From Clostridia bacterium (GTDB taxonomy: Bacteria > Bacillota_A > Clostridia > Oscillospirales > CAG-272), in the NCBI GenBank assembly GCA_017414605.1, contig JAFQLG010000024.1:1-17177 (forward strand): DNA of 17,177 nt. Direction: 5' to 3'. The notes under the pieces were generated by a model. It saw nothing but the letters and a program-made list of their open reading frames with translations. It made no database searches and had not been told where the DNA came from. The translations under genes and the position numbers were made by a program. This document shows positions 5,584-11,850 of the stretch, piece by piece (within the stretch, counting starts at the first letter, position 1; every line of letters begins with the position of its first letter).

Positions 5584-5603
5584 CACCAAATGTAATTTGT
5601 CAA
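5575..5603 (-). promoter_or_regulatory. Promoter of the GntR-ABC operon
   Basis: On the minus strand TTGACA (5603-5598), 17-base spacer and TATTAT (5580-5575). The start is expected near 5568, inside the palindrome, giving a leader of about 30 bases before ATG 5538. Confidence 0.85.
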
Positions 5604-5622
5604 TAGTTTTTTGCAAAAAATA

Positions 5623-5651
5623 TTGACAAATATAATCGACAGGTATATAAT
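5623..5651 (+). promoter_or_regulatory. Promoter of the structured RNA
   Basis: TTGACA (5623-5628), 17-base spacer, TATAAT (5646-5651): a full consensus match. The expected start is near 5658, which is exactly the first base of the long closing helix of the RNA. It is back to back with the GntR operon promoter. Confidence 0.88.
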
Positions 5652-5657
5652 GAAAGA

Positions 5658-5820
5658 GCCAAACTAACTTAATAAACGTGAAAGACGGGTGTACTATCTT
5701 TATTTATAGGGATAGTTAGACTCTTTTTTGGGCATAATAATAGCTATGAATTTGATAAAATGCAAATTCCAATTATGCTGTTATTATGGTTACACCTATT
5801 TCACGTAATGTTAGTTTGGC
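5658..5820 (+). ncRNA. Structured non-coding RNA, family not recognised (6S-like or leader RNA)
   Basis: The transcript folds by long-range pairing visible by eye. P1 pairs 5658-5668 with 5810-5820 (11 perfect bp, GCCAAACTAAC / GTTAGTTTGGC). P2 pairs 5676-5683 with 5799-5806 (ACGTGAAA / TTTCACGT, 8 bp). P3 pairs 5688-5693 with 5791-5796 (GGTGTA / TACACC, 6 bp). Inside are two hairpins: A, 5693-5716, 10 bp with a TTTA loop; and B, 5733-5744 with 5777-5788 (12 bp), capped by GAATTT / AAATTC (5748-5753 with 5764-5769). The linker 5717-5731 between A and B is T-rich. A consensus promoter starts it at P1 and a strong terminator ends the transcript at ~5872. No ORF with a ribosome binding site fits. 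A rod of interrupted helices of this length recalls 6S RNA, but the junction is more lopsided than in known 6S RNAs. It could instead be a leader controlling the lipoprotein gene at 5901. Confidence 0.65.
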
Positions 5821-5842
5821 GACTATCGGAGTTTGCGTTTTT

Positions 5843-5872
5843 GTGCGGTTACTTCGGTAGCCGCACTTTTTT
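5843..5872 (+). terminator. Intrinsic terminator of the structured RNA
   Basis: Ten-bp stem GTGCGGTTAC / GTAGCCGCAC (one wobble) with the extra-stable TTCG tetraloop, followed by six T residues. It lies 23 bases after P1 of the RNA and 28 bases before the lipoprotein ATG. Confidence 0.93.
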
Positions 5873-5900
5873 ATTCTTATATCATACTTTGGAGGGAAAA

Positions 5901-6864
5901 ATGAAAAGAATTGTAATTGTTATGATGGTGCTGATTTTAGTGTTTGCGTTTGTATCTTGTGAGGTTACTGAAATTGACACAAACACCACCGTTGCGGAAA
6001 AAGAAGAGATTACAACAGGGACAAATGAACAAACAACAGGACAAAAAGAAGAAACGTCTACCGAAACGAAAGAGGAAACCACCGAAAGAAATCAGGCAAA
6101 TAATGAGATAACATTTGCCGAACAAACGGTCATTGATAACGATGAAATCAGTATAACGATTACAAAAATCGATCCTGACGATTTTTGGGGATATGCTTTG
6201 GACGTAAGGCTTGAGAACAAGTCAAGCGAAAAAACATATATGTTTGCTCTTTATGGTGTGACTGTGAATGGAGTTGAGTGCGAGGCGTTGCTCGCGGAGG
6301 AGGTCGCACCCGGTAAAAAAGCAAATAGCAGTATAATAATTTATGGCGACACGTTAGAAGAAAACGGTATAACCCTATTCACCGATATTGCATTGGATTT
6401 CCATGTATATAACAGCGAGGATTGGTTGGATGAGGAGCTTTCGTTTGAAACCGTACATATTTATCCTTACGGAAAAGAGAAAGCTGAAAAATACGTGCGA
6501 GAGTCTCAGGCGACCGACAATGTAATTGTTGATAATGAGAATGTAACGGTTATTGTAACAGGCTATGAGCATGACATAATTTGGGGATACACTGTAAATA
6601 TGTTTGTGATAAACCATACTGATAAAGAGGTAATGCTCAGTGCAGATGAAGTCTCGGTTAACGGTTATATGATAGATCCTTTTTTTTGCAACCTCTGTCG
6701 GTGCCGGTAATTGTAAATTTGCTGAAATATCTTGGTTAGACAATAGTTTTGAGGATAATGGAATAACCGAAGTTGAAGAAATAGAATTTATATTGAGAGC
6801 CTATAATTCTGAGGATTGGTTTGCGGACGATTTTGCCAATGAGAAAATAACGCTTAATCCTTAA
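5901..6864 (+). pseudogene. Lipoprotein with two tandem repeat domains, frameshifted in a T8 run
   Basis: ATG 5901 follows GGAGGG. The product starts with a lipoprotein signal (MKRIVIVMMVLILVFAFVSC, Cys20), a Thr/Glu-rich linker (residues ~24-70), and then a domain present twice: each copy has WGY near its start, a VNG turn, a DNGIT/ENGIT turn and a YNSEDW motif near its end. As written, translation stops at 6710 after a short nonsense tail (269 residues). Dropping one base from the eight T residues at 6680-6687 restores the frame through a second YNSEDW to TAA 6862-6864 (320 residues). Because the second domain is intact after the shift, this is a sequencing error, a recent mutation or a slippage switch. 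The protein should be surface-anchored; such tandem-domain lipoproteins occur in Clostridia, with unknown function. Base composition is more AT-rich than the neighbouring metabolic genes. Confidence 0.8.
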
Positions 6865-6903: not shown

Positions 6904-6978
6904 GGTCGAAGTGGCGGGACTCGAACTCGCGGCCTCCAGTACCCGAAACTGGCGCGCTACCACCTGCGCTACACCTCG
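6903..6978 (-). tRNA. tRNA-Pro (anticodon CGG)
   Basis: A 76-base cloverleaf on the minus strand with encoded CCA (6905-6903). The acceptor is CGAGGTG / CACTTCG with the C1-G72 pair and A73 discriminator typical of bacterial proline tRNAs. The D stem is GCGC/GCGC with an AGGTGGTA loop; the anticodon stem CCAGT/ACTGG holds loop TTCGGGT, which gives anticodon CGG (reads CCG) followed by G37. The variable loop has 5 bases and the T loop is TTCGAGT. The T stem GCGAG/CCCGC has one A-C mismatch (positions 52-62), the only imperfection. Confidence 0.95.
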
Positions 6979-9456: not shown

Positions 9457-11850
9457 TTATGTTACCAAGCTTTCCGCATATCTTACGGCGCCCATAGCGT
9501 CCTTTGCATAGGCATCCGCGCCTATCATATTGGCGTATTGTTCGGTGAGGACCGCGCCGCCAACCATTATTTTAACCGTTGGCGCCTGCTTTCGCAAAAG
9601 CTTGATGGTCTGCTCCATGGCAGGAACGGTCGTGGTCATCAGCGCGCTCAGTCCAACGATGTCCGCACCGTTTTCAAGAGCGGCTCTGACTATCAGCTCA
9701 GGGCTAACGTCTTTTCCAAGGTCTATTACCATAAAACCGTAATTCTGGAGCAGCAAGGACACGATGTTCTTGCCAATATCGTGAATGTCGCCCTTAACGG
9801 TTGCCATAACTATGCAAAGTCGGTCGCCTCTTGTACCGTTTTTGGCGAGCTCGGGCTTGATGCGTTCAAATGCCGCCTTTGCCGCCTCGGCGCTCATAAG
9901 CAGGGCGGGGAGATAGACCGTGTGCTGCTCAAATCCGCGACCAACCGTATCAAGCGCGGGGATAATGTGCTCGTTAACTATGTCAAGCGGTTGCTTTTGA
10001 GCCAAGAGCTCGTCCGTCAGTCTGTAAGCCGCATCCTTAATGCCGTTGACTATGCAATCGTAAAGAGTACCGTCTGCCTGCCTTTTTGTGTTTTGGCAAG
10101 CCACCGCCGCCGTATTTACCTCGCCAAGCTTTTGAGCAAAATCAAGGTAATCGGCGCAGCTTGTGTCAAATCCCGAAAGCGCACAGAAGGCGCGGTATGC
10201 CTTCATCATCTCCTTGGAATGAGGATTCATTATAGCCGCAGAAAGTCCGCTGTGCAATGCCATGGTAAAGAAGTATGCGTTCAGCACGTCGCGGCAGGGC
10301 AGACCAAAGGAAACGTTGGATACGCCAAGCACCGTGTTGCAACCAAGTCGCTCGCGGATAAGACGGAGCGCGTCAAGTGTGACCTTGGCGGCATTTTGGT
10401 CGGCGCTGACCGTCATGGTAAGAGTATCAAATATCAGGTCATTTTTTGAAAGACCGTATTTCTTTGCCTCATCAAGTATTTTTTTGGCTATCTCAAAGCG
10501 CCCCTCGGCTGTGGCGGGAATTCCGTCATCGTCAAGAGTAAGCGCAACCGCCACGCCGCCGTATTTTTTCATAAGGGGGAATATGGCATCCATAGACTCC
10601 TGCTTGCCCGAGAGCGAGTTGATAAGCGCCTTTCCGTTGTAGCGTCGCAGAGCCGCCTCCATAGCAGACACGCTTGAGGTGTCTATCTGTAAGGGCAGGT
10701 CACAAACCGCCTGTATCTCGCACGTAACGCGAGCAATAGTTGCCACCTCGTCTATTTCGGGAAGCCCAACGTTTAAGTCAAGCACGTGCGCACCCGCCTC
10801 CTCTTGCGAGATAGCCTCGCTTAAAATGTAGGCGAGATCACCCTCGCGCAAGGCCTGCTTGATACGAGGCTTGCCCGTTGGGTTGATGCGCTCGCCGATA
10901 AGCAGGGGCGCTTTACCAAGCTCCAGCGCGTGAGTATATGATGAAATGAGGGAAATATCTTTTTTGCTCGGCATCTTTGGCGCAACGTCGCGCGTGTTGT
11001 CAAATGTAGCCTTGATATATTCGGGCGTTGTTCCGCAGCAGCCGCCCATTATGGAAACGCCTGCCTCGGCATAGCCGCGCATAAGACTGCCGAAATGCTC
11101 GGGCGTTACGTCATAGACCGTTCTGCCGTTTTGTACCCTTGGCAGTCCCGCGTTGGGCTTTAAGAGAACGGGAACGGACGAGTATTTCAGAAGCTGCTCA
11201 ACAACGGGAGCAAGCTGTGCGGGACCGAGAGAGCAGTTTGCGCCGATCGCGTCCGCCCCAAGACCTTCAAGCATTGCTACCATAGCGGCAGGCGATGCAC
11301 CCGTCATAAGCTTTGCATCCGCGCCGTAAGCGTTGGAAACGAAAACGGGCAGGTCACAGGATTCCTTTGCGGCAAGCAGCGCCGCCTTGGTTTCGTATGA
11401 GTCGTTCATCGTTTCAATGAATACAAGGTCAACACCGCATTTTGCACCGATAGTGACCACCTCTGAAAAAAGCGCGACCGCGCGCTCAAAATCAAGGTCG
11501 CCATAGGGAGCTAAAAGACGTCCCAGAGGGCCTACGTCAAGCGCGATAAACTTTTCTTTTGTGTTTTGTGTGAGCTCGCGCGCCTTTTTGGCATTGTCAA
11601 CGGCGGCGCAGATTATATCCTCAAGCTCGCGGTGCGAGAACTTAAGTCCGTTTGCGCCAAAGGTGTTTGTGGACACAACGTTGCTTCCCGCGTCGTAATA
11701 AGCGCGGTGAATGTCAACGATCGTGTGGGGGTGGGAAATGTTCCAGACCTCAGGCAGCTCGCCCGAGGAAAGACCGCGCTGCTGGAGCAGAGTACCCATT
11801 CCGCCGTCAAGATATATTCTGTTGTGCTTCAAGTAATCAAGAATCTTCAT
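9457..11850 (-). CDS. metH: Cobalamin-dependent methionine synthase, without reactivation domain
   Basis: 797 residues. Homocysteine domain 1-~290: the zinc-binding cysteines are C206 (GANCSLGP) and C271-C272 (GGCCGTTP). Methyltetrahydrofolate (pterin-binding) domain ~315-575, opening GERINPTGKPRIKQAL (319-334) with HVLDLNVG (355-362) and QIDTSS (388-393). Cobalamin cap ~590-670, with the VYLPALLMSAEAAKAAF helix. B12-binding domain ~675-797, with DIHDIG at 688-693; H690 is the lower axial ligand of cobalt. The fourth, AdoMet-dependent reactivation domain of the ~1200-residue E. coli enzyme is absent; it is encoded as a separate gene three bases upstream. It transfers the methyl of 5-methyl-THF to homocysteine. 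Start 11850 is set by AAGGA upstream. It is the last gene of a five-gene operon. Confidence 0.96.
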   Translation of the reverse strand: MKILDYLKHNRIYLDGGMGTLLQQRGLSSGELPEVWNISHPHTIVDIHRAYYDAGSNVVSTNTFGANGLKFSHRELEDIICAAVDNAKKARELTQNTKEKFIALDVGPLGRLLAPYGDLDFERAVALFSEVVTIGAKCGVDLVFIETMNDSYETKAALLAAKESCDLPVFVSNAYGADAKLMTGASPAAMVAMLEGLGADAIGANCSLGPAQLAPVVEQLLKYSSVPVLLKPNAGLPRVQNGRTVYDVTPEHFGSLMRGYAEAGVSIMGGCCGTTPEYIKATFDNTRDVAPKMPSKKDISLISSYTHALELGKAPLLIGERINPTGKPRIKQALREGDLAYILSEAISQEEAGAHVLDLNVGLPEIDEVATIARVTCEIQAVCDLPLQIDTSSVSAMEAALRRYNGKALINSLSGKQESMDAIFPLMKKYGGVAVALTLDDDGIPATAEGRFEIAKKILDEAKKYGLSKNDLIFDTLTMTVSADQNAAKVTLDALRLIRERLGCNTVLGVSNVSFGLPCRDVLNAYFFTMALHSGLSAAIMNPHSKEMMKAYRAFCALSGFDTSCADYLDFAQKLGEVNTAAVACQNTKRQADGTLYDCIVNGIKDAAYRLTDELLAQKQPLDIVNEHIIPALDTVGRGFEQHTVYLPALLMSAEAAKAAFERIKPELAKNGTRGDRLCIVMATVKGDIHDIGKNIVSLLLQNYGFMVIDLGKDVSPELIVRAALENGADIVGLSALMTTTVPAMEQTIKLLRKQAPTVKIMVGGAVLTEQYANMIGADAYAKDAMGAVRYAESLVT
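9464..9498. repeat. Direct repeat, right copy (inside metH 3' end)
   Basis: Second copy of the 35-base repeat described at 7126-7160. It encodes the last codons of the complete metH (GAVRYAESLV) except the final Thr and stop. Confidence 0.85.

What the first reader, a model, noticed from the sequence alone, without database searches (positions are those of the whole stretch)
5658..5872. Unassigned structured RNA between a consensus promoter and a strong terminator
Bases 5658-5820 fold into a rod of three helices (11, 8 and 6 bp formed between ends ~150 bases apart) closing on two internal hairpins (10 bp, and 12 bp plus a 6-bp cap). The promoter puts the transcript 5' end exactly at the first paired base, and a TTCG-loop terminator ends it ~215 bases later. 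No coding capacity explains the pairing. The rod with its opening ~37 bases from the 5' end recalls 6S RNA (in B. subtilis 6S-1 the product RNA starts around U40), but the loop is 39 bases on one side and 2 on the other, unlike usual 6S. It may be a divergent 6S, an unrecognised small RNA class, or a leader of the lipoprotein gene.
Basis: partly seen in the sequence, partly recalled or inferred. Interest (0 to 1): 0.72.

Follow-up and report, generated by a model that had tools for sequence, protein, structure and literature searches.

The report
Multi-copy RNA switch in gut Clostridia
The sequence is one copy of an apparently undescribed family of folded RNA leaders that sit in front of many different genes, surface-protein genes prominent among them, in gut bacteria and look built to stop or allow transcription of the next gene by choosing between competing base pairings.

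Summary
The structured RNA is real and far from chance (z -9.7). It is not 6S and matches no Rfam family. It is one copy of a multi-copy family of gut Clostridia: model R1 hits 233 of 395 genomes of one family; model R2 of a shorter form hits 79 of 291 of the class and 4-24 places in 15 genomes scanned deeper; in two phylum samples only the centre genome hits. Copies have a sigma-70-type promoter (97/105 against 0/98) and a terminator; a same-strand gene start follows within 120 nt (median 22) in 116/167, against 16/167 and 15/156 in controls. So it is a cis-regulatory leader. Main new point: a conserved tail before the terminator has two exclusive partners, an apical strand of the rod (about 15 bp, pseudoknot-like) and the terminator's own 5' arm and loop (antiterminator). 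Both show compensatory changes and beat all permutations, also in 48 later elements. Best reading: transcription attenuator of riboswitch type, trigger unknown. No expression data were available.

The parts
5623..5651 (+). promoter: TTGACA (5623-5628), 17-nt spacer, TATAAT (5646-5651)
   Evidence: sequence; same promoter position in 97 of 105 copies against 0 of 98 control positions, 42 of 48 later copies against 1 of 48
5658..5668 (+). P1 5' arm, pairs with 5810-5820; inferred transcript start
   Evidence: fold; own arms beat permuted arms, 0 of 10000, 47 distinct arms (P1 was in the search model)
5676..5683 (+). P2 5' arm, pairs with 5799-5806
   Evidence: fold; 6 of 8 pairs with changes on both sides
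5687..5693 (+). P3 5' arm, pairs with 5791-5797
   Evidence: fold; 96.6% of cells paired, 3 of 7 pairs with changes on both sides
5694..5715 (+). P4 local hairpin (5694-5702 with 5707-5715); a U run follows shortly after
   Evidence: fold; 85.6% of cells paired
5733..5788 (+). P5 stem (5733-5744 with 5777-5788) enclosing P6
   Evidence: fold; helices 5-7 (47.6-80.5% of cells paired)
5748..5769 (+). P6 hairpin (5748-5754 with 5763-5769), competes for the apical strand
   Evidence: fold; mean -6.1 kcal/mol over 105 copies
5757..5770 (+). apical strand AAAATGCAAATTCC, 14 bp with the tail (pseudoknot-like helix)
5827..5842 (+). tail CGGAGTTTGCGTTTTT: pairs with the apical strand, or with the terminator 5' arm and loop
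5845..5856 (+). antiterminator partner inside the terminator: GCG 5845-5847 and ACTTCG 5851-5856 pair with tail 5834-5836 and 5827-5832
   Evidence: window -10.7 kcal/mol; compensatory loop and tail changes in other copies
5843..5872 (+). intrinsic terminator, 10-bp stem with TTCG loop, T6
   Evidence: fold; 102 of 105 copies (it was in the search model)
5891..5896 (+). Shine-Dalgarno GGAGGG
   Evidence: sequence
5901..6710 (+). downstream gene, lipoprotein-like ORF (hydrophobic start with a lipobox by a simple pattern); ends after a T8 run near 6680
   Evidence: ORF read; no Pfam family over its cut-off

Best explanation
The element is a cis-acting transcription attenuator leader of riboswitch type. 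A sigma-70-like promoter starts the RNA at P1. The rod folds, with P6 first holding the apical strand. When the tail GGAG...UUUUU emerges it either (a) pairs with the apical strand, which leaves the terminator arms free, so transcription stops near +215, or (b) pairs with the terminator's 5' arm and loop (antiterminator), so RNA polymerase reads into the gene that starts a few tens of nt later. A signal acting on the rod or on P6 (small molecule, protein or RNA; unknown) decides between them. Shown by sequence: promoter, position, rod, tail:apical complementarity, tail:terminator-arm complementarity, terminator, multi-copy distribution. Inferred: that the two tail pairings are alternative states in the cell, the direction (pseudoknot = off), and that a signal exists. 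Among the genes behind it BspA-repeat proteins and, behind the long form, lipoproteins stand out, so a surface and accessory-gene regulon is the likely purpose.
For: Position: of 177 distinct elements, 167 had at least 300 nt of flank on both sides; 116 of these have a same-strand ATG with SD within 120 nt (median 22), against 16 of 167 on the divergent side and 15 of 156 at 600 nt downstream; within 40 nt 96, 0 and 6. Promoter: 97/105 against 0/98, 42/48 against 1/48; promoters were not in the search models. Tail:apical helix: at least 12 bp, mean 14.6, and -13.5 kcal/mol or better in all 105 of the first set; 30 distinct tails, own -17.5 against permuted -12.8 +/- 0.53, 0 of 10000; later set, 34 distinct tails, own -15.55 against -12.95 +/- 0.38, 0 of 5000. 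Antiterminator: 77 distinct long-form pairs of tail and arm own -11.93 against -11.42 +/- 0.13, 33 short-form -14.45 against -12.87 +/- 0.39, each 0 of 5000; later set, 43, -15.72 against -13.06 +/- 0.37, 0 of 5000. Loop and tail change together in some copies, e.g. ACTTGGG with loop CTCAAG, TTTGAGT with CTCAGG, CGAAGG with CCTTCG in L266. Neither tail pairing was in the models. Regulon: BspA LRR_5 in 14 of 88 and 8 of 27 downstream proteins scanned, lipobox in 31 of 103 of the first set.
Against: No transcript, termination or ligand data. Two-state switching is inferred from exclusive pairings; the tail:apical helix is a pseudoknot with the rod and its reach in three dimensions was not tested. 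In the long form the antiterminator is weak (mean -12.0 against -18.4 for the pseudoknot and -15.9 for the terminator), and its permutation gain is only 0.5 kcal/mol. Some short forms have a weak tail:apical helix (worst -9.1, L281; worst -11.6 in the later set). Permutations do not correct for relatedness, and the models score tail sequence. Downstream genes have no common metabolic theme, and lipoboxes are few behind the later short-form set (3 of 34). Upstream units of tandem arrays keep an intact RNA although their gene is cut to 27-28 codons, which cis control does not explain. Of 48 later elements, 14 had no start codon by the rule used, at least three of them because a second element follows (L327, L328, L340); 51 of 167 fail the stricter rule.
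Confidence: 0.67

Rival explanations
1. A free, trans-acting small RNA. The terminator is constitutive; the next gene is expressed by leaky read-through. Because tails and apical strands match across many copies, RNAs from different loci could pair with each other and cross-regulate the set.
For: Terminator in 102/105 (it was in the model); tandem copies (L180 four units, the first cut by the contig end; L149; L295; L302, L321, L327, L328, L340); arrayed units keep an intact RNA without a full gene.
Against: Short spacing to a gene start on one fixed side (96 of 167 within 40 nt); antiterminator complementarity has no role in this model yet carries compensatory changes.
Confidence: 0.14
2. A processive antitermination element (like put or EAR RNAs, recalled): the folded RNA, alone or with a protein, modifies RNA polymerase so that it ignores the adjacent terminator.
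For: Large folded RNA directly before a terminator and gene; no ligand theme in the genes.
Against: No Rfam match (that EAR is an Rfam family is recalled); the terminator is adjacent and its 5' arm can pair with the tail, which fits strand competition better.
Confidence: 0.1
3. A mobile miniature element (MITE-like hairpin with P1 as terminal repeats) that spread through these genomes.
For: Up to 24 places per genome, tandem copies, RNA bodies that differ while flanks are nearly equal, one copy in a phage record.
Against: Constant orientation and short spacing to the next gene; internal pairs kept by compensatory change; a promoter outside P1 goes with it. Target-site duplications and empty sites were not sought.
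Confidence: 0.04
4. A divergent 6S RNA.
For: Long rod with an internal opening.
Against: No RF00013 match; ordinary 6S elsewhere in the same genomes; many copies; leader position.
Confidence: 0.01

Closest known systems
Pseudoknot riboswitches with transcriptional expression platforms (ZTP/ZMP pfl type; PMC7337938, passages seen)
   Same: Exclusive choice between a pseudoknot strand and a terminator strand in a 5' leader.
   Different: In pfl the pseudoknot acts as antiterminator; here the tail is shared by pseudoknot and antiterminator, so the pseudoknot would favour termination. Helix of about 15 bp, rod of over 100 nt, no ligand known, no Rfam match.
c-di-GMP (GEMM) riboswitches (recalled)
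   Same: Many copies per genome, some before surface-protein genes.
   Different: No Rfam match; GGDEF found in 0 of 16 genomes that carry this RNA (draft genomes).
EAR, put and LoaP leader elements (recalled; search listing)
   Same: RNA leaders that decide read-through of terminators.
   Different: Not matched by Rfam; sequence here supports strand competition with the adjacent terminator.
Type III toxin-antitoxin RNA loci (ToxIN; recalled, search listing)
   Same: Promoter, structured RNA, terminator, then a gene close behind; tandem RNAs.
   Different: No common toxin downstream; genes are unrelated.
6S RNA (RF00013)
   Same: Rod with an opening.
   Different: No match, multi-copy, leader position, separate 6S present.

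Membership tests
Transcription attenuator leader (kind) | Lies between a promoter and a start codon, same strand | tested here: met
   (promoter 97/105 and 42/48; gene start 116/167)
Transcription attenuator leader (kind) | Intrinsic terminator upstream of the ribosome-binding site | tested here: met
Transcription attenuator leader (kind) | Antiterminator exclusive with the terminator | tested here: met
   pairing and compensatory changes; sequence evidence only, weak in the long form
Transcription attenuator leader (kind) | Read-through responds to a signal | not testable with these tools
   no expression or biochemical data
Any RNA family of Rfam 15 | Match at the family's gathering score | tested here: not met
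   only tRNAs at gathering, in the window and 13 loci with elements; best sub-threshold hit sbrA 27.1 of 45 bits, on 5805-5873
6S RNA | RF00013 match | tested here: not met
   6S lies elsewhere in relatives
c-di-GMP riboswitch | Rfam match, and c-di-GMP synthesis in the genomes | tested here: not met
   GGDEF 0 of 16 genomes, controls ring in 8 of 14
Type III toxin-antitoxin | Downstream endoribonuclease toxin in each locus | tested here: not met
   unrelated downstream genes
MITE | Random orientation to neighbouring genes | tested here: not met
MITE | Target-site duplications | not tested
Processive antiterminator (put, EAR) | Suppresses distant terminators | not testable with these tools

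The most novel reading that the evidence does not exclude
An undescribed class of signal-sensing leader RNA, up to two dozen copies per genome, that coordinates surface-protein and accessory genes across a large clade of gut Clostridia by a strand exchange among P6 strand, apical strand, tail and terminator arm. Its tandem arrays, in which the RNA body varies while promoter, terminator and gene start stay nearly the same, may reflect selection for or exchange of diverse bodies, and matching tails and apical strands may let copies talk to each other.
Probability: 0.4. Interest if true: 0.87.

Novelty: new variant of a known kind. Interest (0 to 1): 0.76.

Why it matters
If right, many members of a bacterial class rely on an RNA switch that Rfam does not describe, at copy numbers that I recall chiefly for second-messenger riboswitches, and in genomes where GGDEF was not found. 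Finding its trigger would show what signal sets these genes in rumen and gut bacteria. The strand choice, readable in sequence with natural compensatory variants, is directly testable in vitro without culturing the hosts.

Tried and rejected
6S. Rfam at permissive threshold: only sub-threshold matches. MITE. c-di-GMP as ligand. Small ORF inside the RNA: the window ORF from 5760 does not keep frame in L097 (seen by eye; no coding test run). A second terminator-like hairpin at about +72 (P4 followed by a U run): noted, not tested. Viral contigs by exact pattern: 4 stretches for the apical pattern, none matching R1, 0 for the tail pattern. Plasmids: one 30-base match, not taken as real. Phages: 4 records matched, one of them a true copy by R1 (MT835503.1). 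Literature searches: titles and abstract starts in the listings describe nothing like it; only passages of PMC11109978 and PMC7337938 were seen; the library holds open-licence papers only. SLOG-like protein in 30 genomes: 25 have a match; of the 30 loci kept, 10 show the RNA on the gene's upstream side (9 well, one of them, L257, about 300 nt off; L279 weakly) and 20 do not, so the tie to that gene is partial.

Superseded or lenient counts: one search misplaced the tail in about ten elements (own -16.6 against other -14.6 there; replaced). (103 of 105 with an ORF) uses a lenient rule; one search is the strict one. In one search the downstream stretch of the L180 units was cut too wide (83-91% identity); one search gives 93-99%. 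Rows dropped: opposite-strand palindrome echoes, 26 of 68 rows and 22 of 90; one partial copy (L180 1-56); four loci that repeat others; L205. Downstream proteins left out of the Pfam scans: 5 of 93 and 7 of 34, repeats or doubtful ORFs. The elements studied are the better-scoring matches, since loci lists are capped.

Full report
Observation. Fold energy is -77.3 kcal/mol, z -9.68, 0 of 200 shuffles. Rfam finds nothing at gathering score in the window except a tRNA at 6906-6978; eight sub-threshold matches over 5600-5900 at E up to 10, best sbrA with 27.1 of 45 bits on 5805-5873.

Relatives. No whole genome is held for the window. A window protein at 9457-11850 (MetH-like by eye, not scanned) found contigs of gut and rumen Clostridia MAGs, 80 kept, best identity 66%; 20 of them gave genome handles. 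A blastn search with the RNA hit 84 of 196 genomes of the family of G001 at E <= 0.1, often several per genome (at most 4 candidates scored). A covariance model R1 from 30 copies hit 233 of 395 genomes of the family (at most 6 candidates scored) and 78 of 245 of the order. Only G001 itself hit among 378 of the phylum. Two forms exist: long (about 195-228 nt) and short (about 150-185 nt). A short-form model R2 from 32 copies hit 79 of 291 genomes of the class (at most 10 scored) and only G001 among 299 of the phylum, a sample that overlaps the first. Deeper counts: 2-15 matches in 16 genomes with R1 at E <= 0.01, opposite-strand echoes included, and 4-24 in 15 chosen genomes with R2 at E <= 1e-5. 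Named hosts include MAGs RGIG5316, SIG692, SIG672 and RGIG9437 (G001, G002, G011, G020) and SIG450 and RGIG1947 (G012, G014). One copy (R1 132.7 bits) lies in a human-faecal phage record, MT835503.1, before an EcoRI-type methyltransferase gene.

It is a leader. In 105 distinct elements a promoter of the right spacing precedes the start in 97, against 0 of 98 control positions; in 48 later short-form elements 42, against 1 of 48. With a strict rule, of 177 elements the 167 with at least 300 nt of flank were judged: 116 have a same-strand ATG with SD within 120 nt behind the terminator, median 22 nt; the divergent side gives 16 of 167 and a place 600 nt downstream 15 of 156; within 40 nt the numbers are 96, 0 and 6. 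The other 51 fail the rule; some lie before a second element or a doubtful ORF. In the window 28 nt lie between terminator and ATG. Such a gap leaves little room for another promoter (inference).

Structure. On 21 long-form copies the rod helices, the terminator and the tail helix together give 92.0% standard pairs, 27 of 71 pairs with changes on both sides, covariation 0.250 against 0.151 +/- 0.007 (0 of 500) and about 0.06 for slid partners; P5 is the least regular (47.6-80.5% of cells), and the tail helix hardly varies in this subset, with no change on both sides. Folds of 25 sampled long bodies average z -10.3, 9 short bodies -9.3. P1 is found in all 105; 47 distinct arms, own -19.2 against permuted -9.5 +/- 0.5, 0 of 10000; P1 was part of the model, so this is partly by selection.

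The tail has two partners. First, the apical strand of the rod: at least 12 bp, mean 14.6, in all 105, and the 30 distinct tails fit their own apical strand (-17.5) better than permuted ones (-12.8 +/- 0.53; 0 of 10000). Examples of joint change: GGGCCGGCG with TGCCGGTTCC (L225), GGGGCTTGTACTTTTT with AAAAAGTACAAGTTCC (L230), GGAGCTTGTG with TACAAGCTTC (L182). Second, the 5' arm and loop of the terminator: 11-13 bp in many short forms, 6+3 bp in the window. Own against permuted: long (77) -11.93 against -11.42 +/- 0.13; short (33) -14.45 against -12.87 +/- 0.39; 0 of 5000 each. In 48 elements found afterwards the tail helix (34 distinct), the antiterminator (43) and P1 (36) were each matched by 0 of 5000 permutations. 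Most terminator loops are CTTCGG (115 elements); some others, such as CTCAAG, CTCAGG and CTCCGG, go with tails that still pair. Weak cases exist: tail helix -9.1 in L281 and -10.9 in L293, worst -11.6 in the later set. Neither of the two tail pairings was in the models, but the tail's sequence was, and relatedness is not corrected for.

Mechanism. The tail can hold only one partner. With the apical strand it leaves the terminator free; with the terminator arm it blocks the terminator. P6 competes for the apical strand. Mean energies: long form (95), tail helix -18.4, antiterminator -12.0, terminator -15.9; short form (33) -15.3, -14.4, -15.7. So termination looks like the resting state, above all in the long form, and some signal that keeps tail and apical strand apart would give read-through. 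The reverse sense, a ligand that stabilises the tail helix and switches off, is equally open.

Genes. Of 88 downstream proteins scanned (of 93 of suitable length), 14 match BspA repeats, 4 Listeria-Bacteroides repeats, and single ones TIR, AMP-binding, glycosyltransferase, radical SAM, flavodoxin, AbrB/MazE-like, EcoRI methyltransferase and others. Of 27 scanned from 34 in the later set, 8 match BspA and 2 AbrB/MazE-like. Lipobox by a simple pattern: 31 of 103 but only 3 of 34 in the later set; no genome-wide background was measured. A small Cys-rich protein (..GIELTPG..CCCDEC..) recurs behind both forms, and a SLOG-like protein (name recalled; no Pfam match for two members) too. GGDEF: 0 of 16 genomes.

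Arrays. In L180 four units of promoter, RNA, terminator and the first 27-28 codons of the SLOG-like gene follow each other, the first cut by the contig start and the last with the full gene. Terminator plus gene start are 93-99% identical between units, promoters 79-92%, RNA bodies 67-72% (shuffled bodies 49-56%), with P1 arms changed on both sides; two units in L181 give 99%, 83% and 65%. Whether this is fast change, exchange with other copies or assembly of related alleles is open.

Limits. No transcript data. Literature was searched only in an open-licence library; absence there is no proof. The confidence of the best explanation was lowered by 0.01 on re-checking because in the later set lipoboxes are few and 14 of 48 gene starts are missing.

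Noticed in passing
L180 1-1730; also L181, L182: Tandem units in which terminator and the truncated start of a gene (and, less so, the promoter) are nearly identical while the RNA body between them differs strongly with pairing kept.
   Followed up: partly
L221 about 1964, L223 about 2008, L205 about 1942: A mobile element with a TnpV-like gene (one copy scanned, Pfam PF14198) begins with the same sequence right after CTTC or CCTC in the loop of the terminator at three loci, so this terminator hairpin seems to be its target.
   Followed up: partly
L200, L197, L214, L215, L220, L217, L212, L116, L112, L124, L312, L326, L335: A recurrent small Cys-rich protein (about 60-120 aa; no Pfam match for L200) behind the RNA in many genomes.
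   Followed up: no
window 6660-6710: The lipoprotein ORF ends after a run of eight T, with coding-like sequence going on in another frame; real frameshift or assembly error not decided.
   Followed up: no
window 5687-5730 and copies: In the long form the 5' strand of P3 can also pair locally, and that hairpin is followed by a U run, like a second internal terminator at about +72.
   Followed up: no
L202, L339, L342, L344: Small AbrB/MazE-like regulators with a Cys motif stand behind the RNA (Pfam match in 1 of 88 and 2 of 27 scanned; the list is partly by eye); possible regulators of the set.
   Followed up: no
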